64,000 bases of DNA from the NCBI GenBank assembly GCA_030154265.1, contig JASKKH010000002.1:1-64000 (forward strand). The letters run 5' to 3'. Below, piece by piece: positions 7,690 through 14,381 of the stretch (position 1 is the stretch's first letter; every line of letters begins with the position of its first letter). The position numbers and the translations under genes are program-made. The DNA comes from Clostridia bacterium. GTDB taxonomy: Bacteria > Bacillota > DSM-521 > Neomoorellales > Neomoorellaceae. A model generated the notes under the pieces. It saw only the letters and a list, made by a program, of their open reading frames with translations. It had not been told where the DNA came from and ran no database searches.

Positions 7690-7761
7690 AGGCACCTTTT
7701 AGGTAATTCTTAAGGTATAAGGTTGCTATTGCATGACAATAATATACCAGAGGTGAAGCTT

Positions 7762-8271
7762 ATGGCCAATAATAAACAGCAGGGACCACCCAAAAAGCCT
7801 TTAACTTTAACGGAACAAGTAATGCAGCAAAAACAGGCATATGACCAAAAGGCTTATAAGCAGTTAGCTGACAGCGTAAAGCCCAAGAACAATGTATTGG
7901 TTAATGCAATAAATGCTTTCTGGGTGGGCGGAACAATAAGCGCTATAGGTCAAATTATAACTTTAATGTTTACTGCTAATGGTTTGCCCCCAAAAGATGC
8001 TGCTTCGGCTACGGTAATAGTAATGGTTTTCTTAGGTACCTTTTTAACTGGATTAGGTGTCTACGACCGAATTGGTAAAATGGCTGGAGCAGGTTCGATT
8101 ATTCCCATTACTGGATTTGCTAACTCTATTGTGTCACCGGCCATGGAATATAAAAGAGAAGGTTTTGTTTTCGGAGTAGCGGCTAAAATGTTCAGTATAG
8201 CCGGTCCAGTTTTGGTTTATGGGTTTATTATTTCAGTCGTCATCGGTTTAATAGCTTATCTTATATCCTAG
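7762..8271 (+). CDS. spoVAC: Stage V sporulation protein AC
   Basis: About 169 residues with four hydrophobic segments after a polar N-terminus of about 50 residues. SpoVAC is a mechanosensitive-channel-like component of the forespore inner-membrane SpoVA complex that moves dipicolinic acid in during sporulation and out during germination. Conserved stretches include NAFWVGGTISAIGQ and IPITGFANSIVSPAMEYKRE. I use the ATG at 7762 behind AGAGGTG. It begins the spoVAC-D-E-F series; spoVAA and spoVAB are not present, as in many Clostridia. Confidence 0.93.
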   Translation: MANNKQQGPPKKPLTLTEQVMQQKQAYDQKAYKQLADSVKPKNNVLVNAINAFWVGGTISAIGQIITLMFTANGLPPKDAASATVIVMVFLGTFLTGLGVYDRIGKMAGAGSIIPITGFANSIVSPAMEYKREGFVFGVAAKMFSIAGPVLVYGFIISVVIGLIAYLIS

Positions 8272-8283
8272 GGGTGAATATTA

Positions 8284-9300
8284 TTGAGTGCTCCAAAAAG
8301 GATTGGAAAATCTACCGTACAGTTTTCAAATCCACCGGTAATTGTTGCTACTGCTTCAGTTGTAGGGCCTAAAGAAGGGGAAGGACCTTTAGGTAAGACC
8401 TTTGATATGGTTACTCAGGACAGCTACTTTGGACAAGAGTCTTGGGAAAAAGCTGAACGAAAAATGTTAGAAGAAGCAGTTAAAATGGTTATTAATAAAG
8501 CCCGGTTAAAACCACAAGATATTGATGTTTTTTTAGCTGGGGACTTATTAAATCAAACAATATCAGCAAACTATGCCGCTCGAACTTTAGGTATACCATT
8601 TTTGGGTTTATATGGTGCCTGTTCAACTATGTATGAGTCAATGGCAATAGCATCTATGATAATAGATGGTGGTTTTGCTCACCATGTGGTGACCGCAGTT
8701 AGTAGTCATTATGATACAGCAGAACGCCAGTATCGTTTTCCTACTGAACAGGGTGTACAACGTCCTCAGACTGCACAATGGACAGTTAGTGGAGCTGCCG
8801 CAGTATTACTAGCTCCAGCAGGTAATGGACCCCGTATAACCCATGCTACCATCGGAAAAGTTGTCGATGCAGGTATTAAAGATCCTAATGATATGGGTTC
8901 AGCTATGGCTCCTGCTGCTGTAGACACTATTGTCCGGAATTTTCAAGATACTGGGCGTAGTCCCGTTGACTATGACCTTATTGTTACAGGTGATCTTGGT
9001 AAGGTGGGTCATACTATAGCCACAAAACTTCTACAACAGCAGCAATATGATGTTTCTAATAACTACAATGATTGTGGAATTATGATTTATGACCACGAAC
9101 GCCAGGATACCCATGCTGGTGGTAGTGGATGTGCCTGCTCTGGTGTCGTCTTTGCGGGGCATTTAATGGGTCAATTTAATAACGGTAAGATTAAACGCAT
9201 GCTTGGGGTTGGTACTGGGGCCCTATTAAGTCCAACAGCTATACAGCAGGGAGAATCAATTCCAGGTATTGGACACGGTGTTGTTATTGAAATGCTCTAA
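8284..9300 (+). CDS. spoVAD: Stage V sporulation protein AD
   Basis: A 338-residue protein with a thiolase-like fold. SpoVAD binds dipicolinic acid on the outer face of the forespore membrane and partners with SpoVAC and SpoVAEb. Visible are the LGLYGACSTMYESMAIASM segment at the position of the thiolase Cys and a GGSGCACSGVVFAGHL region near the end. The start is a TTG 12 bp after spoVAC behind AGGGGTG. Length fits the family. Confidence 0.95.
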   Translation: MSAPKRIGKSTVQFSNPPVIVATASVVGPKEGEGPLGKTFDMVTQDSYFGQESWEKAERKMLEEAVKMVINKARLKPQDIDVFLAGDLLNQTISANYAARTLGIPFLGLYGACSTMYESMAIASMIIDGGFAHHVVTAVSSHYDTAERQYRFPTEQGVQRPQTAQWTVSGAAAVLLAPAGNGPRITHATIGKVVDAGIKDPNDMGSAMAPAAVDTIVRNFQDTGRSPVDYDLIVTGDLGKVGHTIATKLLQQQQYDVSNNYNDCGIMIYDHERQDTHAGGSGCACSGVVFAGHLMGQFNNGKIKRMLGVGTGALLSPTAIQQGESIPGIGHGVVIEML

Positions 9301-9703: not shown

Positions 9704-11296
9704 ATGACAATAACAGGTGATAAAGTTCAAGTTCACAAAAAAATAGAAGTTAATGTGGATTGGATTTCAAGAGAGCTAGGGGTTGGCGAGAGCTTTGATG
9801 TTATTAAACGCGATATAATTTTTGCGGGAAGAAAGGCAACTTTATTTTATATTAATGGTCTTGTTAAAGACGATGTAATGACTTATATTTTAACTTCAAT
9901 ATCTAAGCTAGAACGTGAGAATCTAGTTCCAGATGCTTTCTTAAAGGTCTATAATCAGTACTTAAGCCATATTCAAGTTTCAGCTGTAGATGATCTTCAT
10001 GAAGTAGTTGATAAAATCTTAACCGGCGAATTGGCAATGATTGTCGATGGTTTTGATAAGGTTTTTTCCATCGATGTTCGTAAATATCCGGCCCGTAATC
10101 CTGAGGAATCTGATTTAGAGCGGGTTGTACGTGGTTCTCGTGATAACTTTATTGAAACAATAATATTTAACACTGCCCTTATACGCCGGAGGGTACGTGA
10201 TCCAAAGTTAAGGACTGAAATACTTCAAGTTGGCAGCCGTTCCAAAACAGATATTTCTGTAGTTTATATTAAAGATATAGCAAATCCAAAATTAGTAAAG
10301 ACCATTAAGAAAAGAATTCAGGATATTAAAATGGATGGACTGCCTATGGCAGAAAAATCTCTTGAAGAATTCATTAGTCCAGGGAGTTTTTGGAACCCAT
10401 TTCCGCGAGTCCGTTACACTGAACGACCAGACGTAGCAGCTGCTCATCTTTTAGAGGGTCATGTCTTGGTTATGGTAGATACATCTCCAAGTATTATGAT
10501 TTTACCAGCGACCCTTTTTCATCATCTTCAACATGCCGAAGAATTTCGTCAGGCACCTCTGATAGGGACTTTTGTCAGGGCCGTACGTTTTATAGGTGTT
10601 GCTGCCTCCGTATTTTTACCGCCTCTTTGGCTTTTAGTTGCTTTGCAACCTAATTTACTACCACCTAATTTAAAATTTATAGGACCAAAAGAAATAGGAC
10701 ATGTTAATTTAATATGGCAATTTCTTTTTGCTGAGCTTGGTGTTGATTTAATGCGATTAGCTGCTATTCATACACCAACGTCTTTGGCTACAGCTCTAGG
10801 CTTAATTGCTGCTGTGTTAATCGGTGAAATTGCAATTGAGGTAGGTTTATTTAATCCGGAAGTAGTCTTATATATGGCTATTGCAGCTGTAGGGATTTTT
10901 GCAACTCCTAGCTATGAACTTGGTATGGCTAATACTATTATAAGAATCCTATTAATTATTGGTGTAGGATTATTCGGTATACCTGGTTTAGTAGCTATAT
11001 TGTTAGCTACAATGATACTTTTACTAACGACAAAATCTTTTGGGCTGCCTTATCTTTGGCCTTTAGTACCTTTTAATCTCAGGGCTATTAAGGATATTTT
11101 AATACGTCCACCTGTTCCCTTGTTAAAATTACGATCTAAAGCTTTACATCCCTTAGATATGGATCGGCAACCTTACCCAACTGTAGCCCGTAGACCTCTA
11201 AATCAAAAGCAAGTTACCAAAGCTGGTCAGATAAAAGAAGAAGAGACAAAAATCTGGCCAGAGCTTGATAAGGAAGATGATGGAAATGGAAGGTAA
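9704..11296 (+). CDS. spoVAF: GerA-family protein SpoVAF
   Basis: A 530-residue protein of the GerAA/SpoVAF family. It has a soluble N-terminal half (for example IFAGRKATLFYINGLVKDDV and ALIRRRVRDPKLRTEILQVG), the FPRVRYTERPD segment at about 228-238, then about five or six membrane helices and a polar C-terminal tail of about 65 residues. In Bacillus SpoVAF associates with the germination apparatus and speeds dipicolinate release. It follows spoVAE by 11 bp. Its end overlaps the next gene, implying continuous transcription into the dehydratase/activase module. Confidence 0.92.
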   Translation: MTITGDKVQVHKKIEVNVDWISRELGVGESFDVIKRDIIFAGRKATLFYINGLVKDDVMTYILTSISKLERENLVPDAFLKVYNQYLSHIQVSAVDDLHEVVDKILTGELAMIVDGFDKVFSIDVRKYPARNPEESDLERVVRGSRDNFIETIIFNTALIRRRVRDPKLRTEILQVGSRSKTDISVVYIKDIANPKLVKTIKKRIQDIKMDGLPMAEKSLEEFISPGSFWNPFPRVRYTERPDVAAAHLLEGHVLVMVDTSPSIMILPATLFHHLQHAEEFRQAPLIGTFVRAVRFIGVAASVFLPPLWLLVALQPNLLPPNLKFIGPKEIGHVNLIWQFLFAELGVDLMRLAAIHTPTSLATALGLIAAVLIGEIAIEVGLFNPEVVLYMAIAAVGIFATPSYELGMANTIIRILLIIGVGLFGIPGLVAILLATMILLLTTKSFGLPYLWPLVPFNLRAIKDILIRPPVPLLKLRSKALHPLDMDRQPYPTVARRPLNQKQVTKAGQIKEEETKIWPELDKEDDGNGR

Positions 11297-12230
11297 AAAA
11301 TGGCGTTTGGGGGTGCCTCGTGCCCTCTTTTATTATTACTATGGTTCATGGTGGAAAGCCTTTTTTGAGGATTTAGGTTTAGAAGTATTGGTTTCACCAC
11401 CCACTTCCAAAGAAATATTAGATATGGGAGTAAGCTTAGCAGTTGTTGAAGCGTGCTTACCAGTAAAGGTTTACTATGGTCATGCTGCTTGGTTATCTGA
11501 AAGGGTTGACGCACTTTTTGTTCCTAGATTAGTAAGTGTGGAAAGAAAGAGTTTTATTTGTCCCAAACTAATGGGCTTACCTGATATGTTAAGAACGGCT
11601 TTAAAGCCATGTCCAAAAATAATTGATAGCACAATAAATCTATCCCGAAATCCGCAAAAGGGTTTAGAAACTGCAGTAAGGAGCGTAGCCAGAACTTTAG
11701 GATTTTCAGGTTCAAAAGTACTTAAGGCTAAAGAGAAAGCGGAAAAATGCTATAAGGCATGGTTGGCAAAACAGAGGGAAGATAAATTAACTGCAGGTAC
11801 AACCGAAAATCCTATCAATATAGGAATTGTGGGACATGGATATCTTTTATATGATCGTTATCTTGGAATGGACATCCCACACAAGGTACAGAAGCTTGGA
11901 AGCAGAGTATATTTACCTGAAAATTTAACTGACGATGAAGTTGAAGAAGCATGCCGGGTACTCCCTAAACGACTTTATTGGACCCTTGGACAAAAAACCA
12001 TGGGTGCAGTTTTAAACTTTATGGAACGAGATGATATTGACGGTATAATTCATTTAACTGCATTCGGTTGTGGGCCTGACTCTATGGTTGGTGAGTTGGC
12101 TGAGCGTTATGCCAGGCGTTGCGGTAAACCGTTTTTGTTATTAAATTTGGATGAGCATACTGGAGAGGCAGGTCTTAATACACGCCTTGAAGCATTTGTG
12201 GATATGCTGACCCGGAGGTGTTCAGCATGA
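11286..12230 (+). CDS. 2-hydroxyacyl-CoA dehydratase-related protein (DUF2229 type)
   Basis: About 314 residues related to the iron-sulfur subunits of 2-hydroxyacyl-CoA dehydratases and to the DUF2229 part of large activase fusions. It opens with LGVPRALFYYYYGSWWKAFF. Candidate cluster ligands are Cys in VEACLPVKVYYGH, FICPKLMGLPDM and TAFGCGPDSM. The C-terminus carries LDEHTGEAGLNTRLEAFVDM, repeated almost exactly in the next gene. I start at the ATG at 11286 behind AAGGAAG; other in-frame ATGs upstream are possible. It overlaps spoVAF by about 11 bp and the next gene by 4 bp. Substrate unknown; it may be a redox or reductase partner rather than a dehydratase. Confidence 0.72.
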   Translation: MEGKKWRLGVPRALFYYYYGSWWKAFFEDLGLEVLVSPPTSKEILDMGVSLAVVEACLPVKVYYGHAAWLSERVDALFVPRLVSVERKSFICPKLMGLPDMLRTALKPCPKIIDSTINLSRNPQKGLETAVRSVARTLGFSGSKVLKAKEKAEKCYKAWLAKQREDKLTAGTTENPINIGIVGHGYLLYDRYLGMDIPHKVQKLGSRVYLPENLTDDEVEEACRVLPKRLYWTLGQKTMGAVLNFMERDDIDGIIHLTAFGCGPDSMVGELAERYARRCGKPFLLLNLDEHTGEAGLNTRLEAFVDMLTRRCSA

Positions 12231-13324
12231 AAGTAACTTTTCCTCATATGGGGAATCTTTGGATTGTTTTGAAAACATTATTTACTCACCTTGGACTGGA
12301 TGTTGTGGTTCCACCACCATGTACCAAACGTACAATGGAGTTAGGTGTGAGGTATGCCCCGGAATCAGCCTGTCTTCCTTTAAAAGTTAATTTAGGTAAT
12401 TTCTTAGAAGCAAGGGAACTAGGGGCTGATACCATTGTCATGGCTGGTGGAGTTGGTCCTTGCCGTATTGGTTATTATGCTGCTGTACAACATGAAATTT
12501 TAAAGGACCTTGGTTATGAGTTTGATATGGTAGTTTTTGAACCTCCTGATGTACACTTTTCAGAAGTTTGGGATAAGATCAAATATCTAAACCGCCGTCC
12601 ATGGCAAGAAGGAGTACGTGGGGTGATTTTAGCCTGGCAAAAGGCTTGTGCTATTGATGCCCTTGAGCAACAGTTACATCGCTTGCGTCCCCTTGAAGAA
12701 AAGCCCGGACAAGCAGATTTAATTTTTCGAAAAGCATTAGAGAAAATAGACGAAGCAAATGACCGAAGGTCAATAAAAAGGGTATATAAAGAGGCTGAAA
12801 GTGAATTAAATAACATACATAGACGATCTATTAATCCACTTAGAATAGCGATAGTAGGGGAAATTTACACTGTTTTAGAACCTCTAGTTAACCTTGATAT
12901 GGAAAAACGCTTAGGCAGATTAGGAGTAGAGGTTGTTAGAGGGCTTTTTATAAGTCGATGGATTAATGATAACCTTTTTAAAGGTATTATGCCTTTACCC
13001 AATCATCATCCGGAGAAAACTGCACCCCCTTATTTAAATCATTTTGTTGGTGGTCACGGTTGGGATTCGGTTGGTGATGCAGTAGCTTTTTCTCGTTCAG
13101 GTTGTGATGGGGTAATTCAGTTAGCTCCACTTACTTGTATGCCGGAAATTGTTGCTCATTCGGTTATGCCGTCTGTACAACAGGATACAGGTGTTCCTAT
13201 TATGACAATTTACTTAGATGAACAAACGGGTGAAGCAGGACTACAAACGCGACTCGAGGCTTTTGTCGATATGATTGGGCGTCAGAAAAATAATTCCTTA
13301 AATAAAGGAATAATTAATATTTAA
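12227..13324 (+). CDS. 2-hydroxyacyl-CoA dehydratase-related protein, second subunit
   Basis: About 365 residues, distantly similar to the preceding product, with opening FPHMGNLWIVLKTLFTHLGL. Likely cluster Cys are in APESACLPLKV, GGVGPCRIGYY and LAPLTCMPEIVA. It ends with LDEQTGEAGLQTRLEAFVDM, matching the upstream gene's C-terminal motif. The ATG at 12227 overlaps the upstream TGA (ATGA) and lies 8 nt after CGGAGG, so translation is coupled. Together the two resemble the two halves of a heterodimer that is part of a single large polypeptide in other Clostridia. Function beyond iron-sulfur binding is not known. Confidence 0.72.
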   Translation: MKVTFPHMGNLWIVLKTLFTHLGLDVVVPPPCTKRTMELGVRYAPESACLPLKVNLGNFLEARELGADTIVMAGGVGPCRIGYYAAVQHEILKDLGYEFDMVVFEPPDVHFSEVWDKIKYLNRRPWQEGVRGVILAWQKACAIDALEQQLHRLRPLEEKPGQADLIFRKALEKIDEANDRRSIKRVYKEAESELNNIHRRSINPLRIAIVGEIYTVLEPLVNLDMEKRLGRLGVEVVRGLFISRWINDNLFKGIMPLPNHHPEKTAPPYLNHFVGGHGWDSVGDAVAFSRSGCDGVIQLAPLTCMPEIVAHSVMPSVQQDTGVPIMTIYLDEQTGEAGLQTRLEAFVDMIGRQKNNSLNKGIINI

Positions 13325-13336
13325 GGGGCTGATATT

Positions 13337-14296
13337 TTGGCAACAGTTTACTTAGGCATAGATGTCGGTTCGGTTAGTACCAATGTTGTTGCCTTAGATA
13401 AGCAAGGTGAAGTTCTTCATTCTGTATATATAAGAACCCATGGGCAACCTATTAAAGCATTGCAAGATGGGTTAAGACAACTAATAAGTGATTTAGGAAA
13501 AAATATTAAGGTTGGTGGTGTTGGTACAACCGGAAGTGGTCGAACCTTAGCAGCAGTTCTTGCTGGTGCTGATGTAGTTAAAAATGAGATAACTGCCCAT
13601 GCCGTTGCCTCAAGTTATCTAGTTCCTGAAGTACAAACTGTAATTGAGATAGGTGGTCAAGATTCAAAAATAATAATTTTGCGTAATGGGGTTGTGACGG
13701 ATTTTGCTATGAACACAGTTTGTGCTGCGGGAACAGGGTCTTTTCTGGATCAACAAGCAGCTAGACTTGGAATTCCTATCGAAGAGTTTGGGGCTAAAGC
13801 TCTTAATGCCAAAAATGCGGTTCGCATTGCAGGCCGTTGTGCGGTTTTTGCAGAGTCAGATATGATACATAAACAACAACAGGGACATCCTTTAGAGGAT
13901 ATTCTTGCTGGATTATGTGAAGCTTTAGTACGTAATTACTTAAATAATGTTGGTAAAGGTAAGGAGATTTTAGCACCCATAGTTTTCCAAGGTGGTGTTG
14001 CTGCCAATGATGGTATGCGTCAAGCCTTTAGTAAAAATTTAGGTGTTGATGTAATTGTGCCTAAATATTATGGGGTCATGGGAGCGTTTGGATCAGCTTT
14101 ATTAGCAAAAGAAATGTATCCTAAAGTTAGTGCCTTTAGGGGTATAGACCTTACAGAAAGAGAATTTAGTACCGGTGGGTTTGAATGTAGCGGTTGTGCC
14201 AATCATTGTGAGATAGTTGAATTAAAGGAAGGCAAAAAGGTTCTTGCACGCTGGGGTGACCGCTGTGGTAAATGGAGCAATGCTGCGGCGGTATAA
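13337..14296 (+). CDS. Acyl-CoA dehydratase activase (BadF/BadG/BcrA/BcrD ATPase)
   Basis: A 319-residue ASKHA-fold ATPase. Seen are the phosphate-1 motif GIDVGSVSTNVVALD (7-21), GVGTTGSGRT, VIEIGGQDSKIIIL, and the FAMNTVCAAGTGSFLD and AGRCAVFAESDMIH segments. The Cys in the last two are the known ligands of the [4Fe-4S] cluster bridging an activase dimer. These proteins use ATP hydrolysis to inject an electron into the partner dehydratase. The C-terminus adds ECSGCANHCEI, an extra Cys cluster beyond the short activases. The TTG start is 12 bp after the previous gene. It completes a three-gene module directly behind spoVA. Confidence 0.85.
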   Translation: MATVYLGIDVGSVSTNVVALDKQGEVLHSVYIRTHGQPIKALQDGLRQLISDLGKNIKVGGVGTTGSGRTLAAVLAGADVVKNEITAHAVASSYLVPEVQTVIEIGGQDSKIIILRNGVVTDFAMNTVCAAGTGSFLDQQAARLGIPIEEFGAKALNAKNAVRIAGRCAVFAESDMIHKQQQGHPLEDILAGLCEALVRNYLNNVGKGKEILAPIVFQGGVAANDGMRQAFSKNLGVDVIVPKYYGVMGAFGSALLAKEMYPKVSAFRGIDLTEREFSTGGFECSGCANHCEIVELKEGKKVLARWGDRCGKWSNAAAV

Positions 14297-14342: not shown

Positions 14343-14381
14343 AAGGGAGAACTTTGTTGTTTAAATAGTTCTCCCTTTTTT
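14343..14381 (+). terminator. Intrinsic terminator after the spoVA/activase operon
   Basis: A perfect 11-bp stem, AAGGGAGAACT/AGTTCTCCCTT, has a 13-nt loop and a TTTTTT tail. It ends the plus-strand transcript and may also stop galU coming from the other side. Confidence 0.9.

What the first reader, a model, noticed from the sequence alone, without database searches (positions are those of the whole stretch)
11286..14296. Dehydratase/activase iron-sulfur module attached to the spoVA operon
Two proteins related to 2-hydroxyacyl-CoA dehydratase subunits and a BadF-type activase follow spoVAF with an 11-bp overlap, a 4-bp overlap and a 12-bp gap, ending at one terminator. So they appear to belong to the dipicolinate-channel operon. 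The two dehydratase-like proteins share a near-identical C-terminal LDEHTGEAGLNTRLEAFVDM-type motif. ATP-driven low-potential electron transfer in a spore context is unexplained.
Basis: partly seen in the sequence, partly recalled or inferred. Interest (0 to 1): 0.65.

Follow-up and report, generated by a model that had tools for sequence, protein, structure and literature searches.

The report
Split plasmalogen-synthase-like module in spoVA operon
Three genes at the end of the operon that builds the spore's dipicolinate channel look like a split version of the anaerobic enzyme that turns ester lipids into ether lipids (plasmalogens), and the arrangement is so widely conserved in anaerobic spore-formers that it suggests the spore membrane is chemically remodelled during sporulation.

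Summary
In detail: spoVAC-AD-AE-AF is followed by DhA, DhB and a BadF-type activase (Act), closed by an intrinsic terminator. The linkage is old: in 250 surveyed genomes the module sits behind a spoVA gene (rarely sigF) in at least 103 genomes of 47 families. Where a real gap precedes DhA, a sigma-F/G-type promoter is found far more often than before housekeeping genes (29% vs 4%). The module is absent from all 17 aerobic-type genomes. 'Dehydratase' is only the superfamily. DhA, DhB and Act match the Red1, Red2 and Act2 parts of PlsA-type fusion proteins (plasmalogen synthase / glycerol ester reductase) and keep their cluster cysteines; ordinary dehydratase-family proteins match only the last ~65 residues. 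Four named Moorella genomes have no fused PlsA, only two such split modules, yet the literature reports plasmalogen-derived dimethylacetals in Moorella. Best reading: a forespore ATP-driven ester-to-ether reductase that remodels the spore membrane. Shown by sequence: anatomy, family branch, linkage, promoter enrichment. Inferred: expression, substrate, effect. I found no paper describing it.

The parts
7715..7744 (+). candidate sigma-F/sigma-G promoter before spoVAC (GTATA-N15-GACAATAATA)
   Evidence: 10 of 11 sigma-F and 8 of 9 sigma-G consensus positions, about 18 nt before the spoVAC ATG at 7762; consensus match only
7762..8271 (+). spoVAC
   Evidence: TIGR02838 above cut-off; ORF tool starts it at TTG 7723, ATG 7762 has a better ribosome site
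8284..9300 (+). spoVAD
   Evidence: PF07451, TIGR02845
9312..9692 (+). spoVAE (spoVAEB type)
   Evidence: TIGR02839 above cut-off
9704..11296 (+). spoVAF
   Evidence: PF03323 GerA; the bona fide SpoVAF group separates cleanly from GerA paralogues by score
11286..12230 (+). DhA: Red1-type reductase subunit (DUF2229), cluster cysteines C57, C92, C262
12227..13324 (+). DhB: Red2/PlsR-type reductase subunit, cluster cysteines C48, C78, C303
13337..14296 (+). Act: BadF-type ATPase activase (Act2 type) with cluster cysteines C129, C168 and a C-terminal four-cysteine tail (C284, C287, C291, C310)
   Evidence: TIGR00241, relatives of solved activators
14345..14381 (+). intrinsic terminator closing the operon

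Best explanation
The three genes are the last part of the spoVA operon and encode a split, forespore-expressed enzyme of the PlsA/PlsR/Ger branch of the benzoyl-CoA reductase / 2-hydroxyacyl-CoA dehydratase radical family. Act, an ATPase expected to form a dimer around one [4Fe-4S] cluster, uses ATP to push low-potential electrons onto the [4Fe-4S] clusters of DhA and DhB, each held by three cysteines. DhA-DhB then reduces the acyl-ester carbonyl of a membrane glycerophospholipid, most likely at sn-1; loss of water gives a vinyl ether (plasmalogen), or further reduction an alkyl ether. Made in the forespore together with the dipicolinate channel, it would convert part of the future spore inner membrane to ether lipids, plausibly lowering permeability and raising heat and chemical stability. 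A second copy elsewhere in the genome would serve the growing cell. Shown by sequence: anatomy, fold prediction, cysteine sets, PlsA-branch membership, conserved spoVA linkage, forespore-promoter enrichment in relatives. Inferred: forespore expression in this organism, electron flow, substrate, effect on the spore.
For: Linkage to spoVA or sigF in at least 103 genomes of 47 families, also where spoVAF is lost. Forespore-type promoters before DhA where a gap exists: 16/42 vs 2/63 with short gaps; 29% vs 4% housekeeping vs 2% shuffled, p = 4e-7; also 57-62 bp upstream of three copies that left the spoVA locus. PlsA branch: DhA matches Red1 nearly end to end (106-118 bits), DhB matches Red2, Act matches Act2 with its cysteine tail (202-234 bits), while HGD-D proteins match DhA by 27 bits or less at the C-terminus; all six reductase cysteines and the Act cluster cysteines are kept in all four fused proteins. 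Four named Moorella genomes carry only two split modules and no fused PlsA, and the paper on Moorella strains reports iso-C15:0 dimethylacetal, 23% in M. carbonis and less in the other species profiles (PMC11328732). Module absent from all 17 aerobic-type genomes; among SpoVAF genomes 0/13 vs 89/98. Linked modules without an adjacent Act are in genomes with a close Act elsewhere.
Against: No expression, biochemistry or spore lipid data. The lipid substrate is inferred from homology; the DhB-Red2 match is modest (best single domains 37-52 bits). In Moorella the second, non-spore module could make all the plasmalogen seen. Some anaerobic spore-formers lack the module, including two genera of the window's own family (L041, L042), so it is not essential to sporulation. 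The window itself has no promoter directly before DhA and depends on read-through. Downstream housekeeping order is also conserved, so linkage alone is not proof of co-function. Promoter and oxygen statistics are not corrected for shared ancestry. The fused proteins used are PlsA-like by domain plan; the C. perfringens sequence itself was not compared.
Confidence: 0.6

Rival explanations
1. A forespore-expressed radical reductase or dehydratase of the same superfamily that acts on a soluble CoA thioester or another small molecule in the spore core, not on membrane lipid.
For: Same fold and electron chemistry as HadBC, BzdNO and DCCP; public annotation of relatives as 2-hydroxyacyl-CoA dehydratase; all spo-linkage and promoter evidence fits equally.
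Against: Nearest relatives by sequence are the PlsA-type fusions, not HGD-D proteins; no CoA-pathway genes recur in the neighbourhood.
Confidence: 0.22
2. The enzyme is a general (vegetative and sporulation) ether-lipid synthase whose position behind spoVA is mainly conserved gene order, without a spore-specific task.
For: lysA, cca, trpS and scpAB are also conserved downstream; Moorella plasmalogens were reported from cultures, not spores.
Against: 22 linked loci keep spoVA-module without these housekeeping genes nearby; forespore-type promoters before DhA, also in relocated copies; module-type genes are mostly confined to genomes with GerA-type spore genes, 171/216 vs 5/34; a separate second module exists in the window genome.
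Confidence: 0.12
3. It replaces or assists dipicolinate synthesis, or reactivates corrinoid / Wood-Ljungdahl enzymes in the germinating spore.
For: Neighbourhood of the dipicolinate channel and lysA; BadF-type ATPases reactivate metalloenzymes elsewhere (general knowledge).
Against: The window genome has a DpaA-like gene (6e-89, just under the curated cut-off) and so do most module carriers; dipicolinate formation is an oxidation (general knowledge). The window genome has no CdhC match and 109 of 176 genomes with a strong DhB match lack CdhC.
Confidence: 0.03

Closest known systems
PlsA-PlsR plasmalogen synthase (C. perfringens; single-chain PlsA of Enterococcus, Bifidobacterium) and Ger glycerol ester reductase
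   Same: Act2, Red1 and Red2 parts, all cluster cysteines, cysteine tail of Act2; oxygen-linked distribution
   Different: Three separate proteins in the order Red1-Red2-Act2; no Act1; encoded in the spoVA operon with forespore-type promoter signals. Activity not shown.
Extra PlsA homologues without activation domain in Bacillota, role called unclear in PMC13274423
   Same: Reductase parts without a fused activation domain, in Bacillota
2-hydroxyacyl-CoA dehydratase HadBC / HgdAB and BzdNO benzoyl-CoA reductase
   Same: Fold, three-cysteine [4Fe-4S] site, BadF-type activator
   Different: Sequence match limited to the C-terminal ~65 residues; CoA substrate not supported
Double-cubane cluster proteins (DCCP) and YjiM/YjiL
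   Same: Fold and activator class
   Different: DCCP-type HGD-D proteins have about nine conserved cysteines against three per subunit here
Bacillus spoVA operon
   Same: spoVAC-AD-AE-AF followed by lysA in the wider cluster (Bacillus order from general knowledge)
   Different: Extra reductase-activase module between spoVAF and lysA

Membership tests
BCR/HAD radical enzyme superfamily | fold of the reductase subunits | tested here: met
   AlphaFold2 models match DCCP, HadBC, BzdNO, MbdON with Foldseek probability 1.00
BCR/HAD radical enzyme superfamily | three-cysteine [4Fe-4S] site per subunit | tested here: met
   exactly three conserved cysteines in DhA and in DhB, spacing like BzdO C95/C128/C380; cluster itself not observed
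BCR/HAD radical enzyme superfamily | BadF-type ATPase activator with bridging-cluster cysteines | tested here: met
   TIGR00241; C129 and C168 invariant
2-hydroxyacyl-CoA dehydratase proper | full-length HGD-D similarity | tested here: not met
   only the C-terminal ~65-72 residues match
2-hydroxyacyl-CoA dehydratase proper | 2-hydroxyacyl-CoA substrate | not testable with these tools
   needs biochemistry
DCCP | second set of cysteines for a double-cubane [8Fe-9S] cluster | tested here: not met
   three conserved cysteines per subunit against about nine in the HGD-D set
PlsA/PlsR/Ger ester reductases | Red1 and Red2 domains | tested here: met
   DhA to Red1 nearly end to end, DhB to Red2, in four fused PlsA-like proteins; cysteines kept
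PlsA/PlsR/Ger ester reductases | activation domain of Act2 type with cysteine tail | tested here: met
   202-234 bits including the tail; YjiL matches without it
PlsA/PlsR/Ger ester reductases | second activation domain (Act1) and a single chain | tested here: not met
   absent here; treated as not defining because PlsR is a separate gene in C. perfringens and one-activase homologues go with plasmalogens (PMC12838417, PMC13274423)
PlsA/PlsR/Ger ester reductases | conversion of acyl ester to vinyl or alkyl ether | not testable with these tools
   indirect only: Moorella genomes with split modules alone, Moorella lipids with dimethylacetals
spoVA operon / forespore regulon | conserved co-directional adjacency to spoVA | tested here: met
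   103 genomes, 47 families
spoVA operon / forespore regulon | sigma-F/sigma-G type promoter | tested here: met
   window: 10/11 match before spoVAC; relatives: enrichment before DhA, p = 4e-7. Consensus evidence only
spoVA operon / forespore regulon | measured forespore expression | not testable with these tools
   no transcript data at hand

The most novel reading that the evidence does not exclude
Programmed conversion of ester lipids to ether lipids in the forespore is an old, common step of sporulation in anaerobic Bacillota, encoded inside the spoVA operon and lost where sporulation became aerobic, so that spores of these anaerobes have a chemically different inner membrane from Bacillus spores.
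Probability: 0.45. Interest if true: 0.87.

Novelty: new variant of a known kind. Interest (0 to 1): 0.76.

Why it matters
Most molecular knowledge of the spore inner membrane comes from Bacillus; aerobic genomes in this survey lack the system. If anaerobic spore-formers rebuild their spore membrane with ether lipids, that gives a concrete, deletable candidate contributor to the extreme heat resistance of spores such as Moorella's, a new class of spore-maturation enzyme, a physiological role for bacterial plasmalogens, and a possible role for PlsA homologues that the lipid literature calls unexplained. It also adds genes to the sporulation set of anaerobes that lists built from Bacillus would miss.

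Tried and rejected
(1) Dehydratase proper as nearest family: HGD-D proteins match only at the C-terminus. (2) DCCP/double cubane: too few cysteines. (3) Dipicolinate-synthase substitute: DpaA-like genes are present in most carriers. (4) Wood-Ljungdahl/corrinoid reactivation: no consistent co-occurrence with CdhC; none in the window genome. (5) Chance or local synteny artefact: rejected by 47 families and by loci that keep spoVA-module without the housekeeping neighbours. (6) Strict SigG regular expressions gave too few hits to be useful; scored consensus with shuffles and housekeeping controls was used instead; the SigG-only score showed no clear enrichment. (7) A first profile alignment with HGD-D proteins was spoiled by wrong-strand ORFs and redone. 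(8) Two C. difficile sporulation-regulon papers and the main text of the Moorella spore proteome mention no such proteins; supplements could not be read.
Full report
OBSERVATION. The reading frames are as described. spoVAC, spoVAD, spoVAE and spoVAF are followed, all on the + strand, by DhA, DhB and Act with overlaps of 11 and 4 bp and a gap of 12 bp. A strong hairpin plus T6 at 14345-14381 ends the run; galU lies on the other strand behind it. A sigma-F/G-like promoter (GTATA-N15-GACAATAATA, 7715-7744) lies just before the spoVAC start codon.

WHAT THE PROTEINS ARE. Pfam sees DUF2229 with only the C-terminal end of HGD-D in DhA and DhB, and BcrAD_BadFG in Act. AlphaFold2 models (pLDDT 85, pLDDT 88) match DCCP, HadBC, BzdNO and MbdON in the PDB with probability 1.00. 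Across relatives exactly three cysteines are conserved in DhA (C57, C92, C262) and three in DhB (C48, C78, C303), with spacing like BzdO C95/C128/C380 as reported in PMC11971306. Act keeps two cysteines at the places expected for the bridging cluster and has a four-cysteine tail. So by sequence these are single-cubane subunits with an ATP-driven activase.

WHICH BRANCH. Profiles of the three families were run against four long fused proteins (from Listeria, Collinsella, Haliovirga, Acetoanaerobium) and against 17 HGD-D proteins including YjiM. The fused proteins are built Act1-Act2-Red1-Red2. DhA covers Red1 nearly end to end at 106-118 bits. DhB covers Red2 (best single domains 37-52 bits). 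Act covers Act2 with its cysteine tail (202-234 bits), while the classical activator YjiL matches without the tail. HGD-D proteins give DhA 27 bits or less, over the last ~65 residues. All Red1/Red2 cysteines, both Act cluster cysteines and C284/C287/C291 are kept in all four fused proteins. This domain plan is that of plasmalogen synthase PlsA/PlsR, described as Act1, Act2, Red1, Red2 of the BCR/HAD family (PMC12838417), and of the related glycerol ester reductase Ger (PMC13274423). That the four fused proteins are PlsA orthologues rests on this plan and on the review listing plsA in Listeria (PMC9702350); the C. perfringens sequence itself was not compared.

DO SPLIT MODULES MAKE ETHER LIPIDS? 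A whole-genome search with a fused PlsA-like protein found no fused protein in Moorella stamsii, M. mulderi, M. sulfitireducens or strain DSM 21394 (M. thermoacetica in the record title, M. caeni in PMC11328732). Red1/Red2-type hits occur there in two split modules per genome, one behind spoVAF and one elsewhere. The window genome shows the same pattern. Moorella fatty-acid profiles contain iso-C15:0 dimethylacetal, the usual derivative of vinyl-ether lipids: 23% in M. carbonis, said to be more than in the other profiles compared (PMC11328732). So at least one of the two split modules very probably does the PlsA reaction; which one is not shown, and the M. carbonis genome was not examined.

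LINKAGE. A contig scan found spoVAF-DhA-DhB in many lineages down to about 45% identity. In 250 genomes of the phylum (at least 90% complete), true SpoVAF occurs in 111, and a DhB lies within 3 kb downstream on the same strand in 61 of them. Reading 120 regions raised the total to at least 103 genomes in 47 families. The common order is dacF-spoIIAA-spoIIAB-sigF-spoVAC-AD-AE-(AEA)-AF-DhA-DhB-Act-(TrpB-like)-lysA-cca-M50-trpS-scpA-scpB. When spoVAF is missing, DhA follows spoVAE or spoVAEA; in three loci it follows sigF. In 22 loci the module sits in the spo cluster without the housekeeping genes within 3.5 kb. In the DhB tree the linked state dominates and unlinked copies are scattered; the window genome's second module groups with other unlinked ones in a fully supported set. 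The 106-of-126 linked fraction is biased by how the loci were chosen; the survey counts are the fair ones.

EXPRESSION SIGNALS. Scored sigma-F consensus sites (10 of 11 or better) occur before DhA in 16 of 42 linked loci with a gap of at least 70 bp but in 2 of 63 with a short gap. Against controls: DhA with gap 29%, spoVAC with gap 22%, housekeeping 4%, spoIIAA 2%, shuffled 2-4%. Three copies that are not beside spoVA also carry a sigma-F or sigma-G type site 57-62 bp upstream of the aligned start (L120, L117, L116); the window genome's second module does not. This is consensus evidence, not measured expression, and related genomes are not independent.

OXYGEN AND ACTIVASE. All 17 genomes with aerobic-type COX1 (E below 1e-140) lack the module; among SpoVAF genomes it is 0 of 13 versus 89 of 98, p = 2e-11, not corrected for phylogeny. 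The surveyed linked modules without an adjacent Act lie in genomes that have a close Act elsewhere, as expected if the activase is required.

ALTERNATIVES. A dipicolinate-synthase role and a Wood-Ljungdahl role are contradicted as general explanations by co-occurrence. A soluble CoA substrate remains possible. I found no paper linking these genes to sporulation in the library held; a 2012 survey of sporulation genes does not mention them in its main text. That library omits most subscription journals, so prior description elsewhere cannot be excluded.

VERDICT. It is best read as a split PlsA-type ester reductase wired into the forespore programme of anaerobic spore-formers. Confidence is about 0.9 that it is a genuine sporulation-linked operon part and about 0.6 for the full lipid mechanism.

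Noticed in passing
L040 (window genome contig C69) 1131-4619: Second split module DhA-DhB-Act followed by a Fur-type regulator; no good forespore promoter; forms a separate clade from the spoVA-linked copies. Candidate vegetative ether-lipid synthase.
   Followed up: partly
L024, L026, L028 (Desulfosporosinus), L025, L030: DhB homologues with no recognisable DhA or Act next to them and not beside spoVA.
   Followed up: partly
L071, L072 (family f73): spoVAF is followed directly by Act, while DhA-DhB lie elsewhere in the genome.
   Followed up: no
L021, L022, L090: dacF-spoIIA-sigF is followed directly by DhA-DhB with no spoVA genes nearby.
   Followed up: no
window genome G000: No CdhC (acetyl-CoA synthase) match, although the other genomes surveyed in its family have one.
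   Followed up: no
G013, G196, G148, G122 (open frames of about 730-755 aa): A third architecture: Red1-Red2 fused without activation domain, next to a separate Act; resembles the 'PlsA homologues lacking the activation domain' of PMC13274423.
   Followed up: no
L020 7960-9312 and many other loci: A TrpB-like PLP enzyme (TIGR01415) often lies between Act and lysA; its role in this cluster is unknown.
   Followed up: partly
L023, L038: DhA-DhB-Act modules linked to a GH57 branching enzyme and a nucleotidyltransferase-phosphomannomutase fusion instead of spoVA.
   Followed up: no
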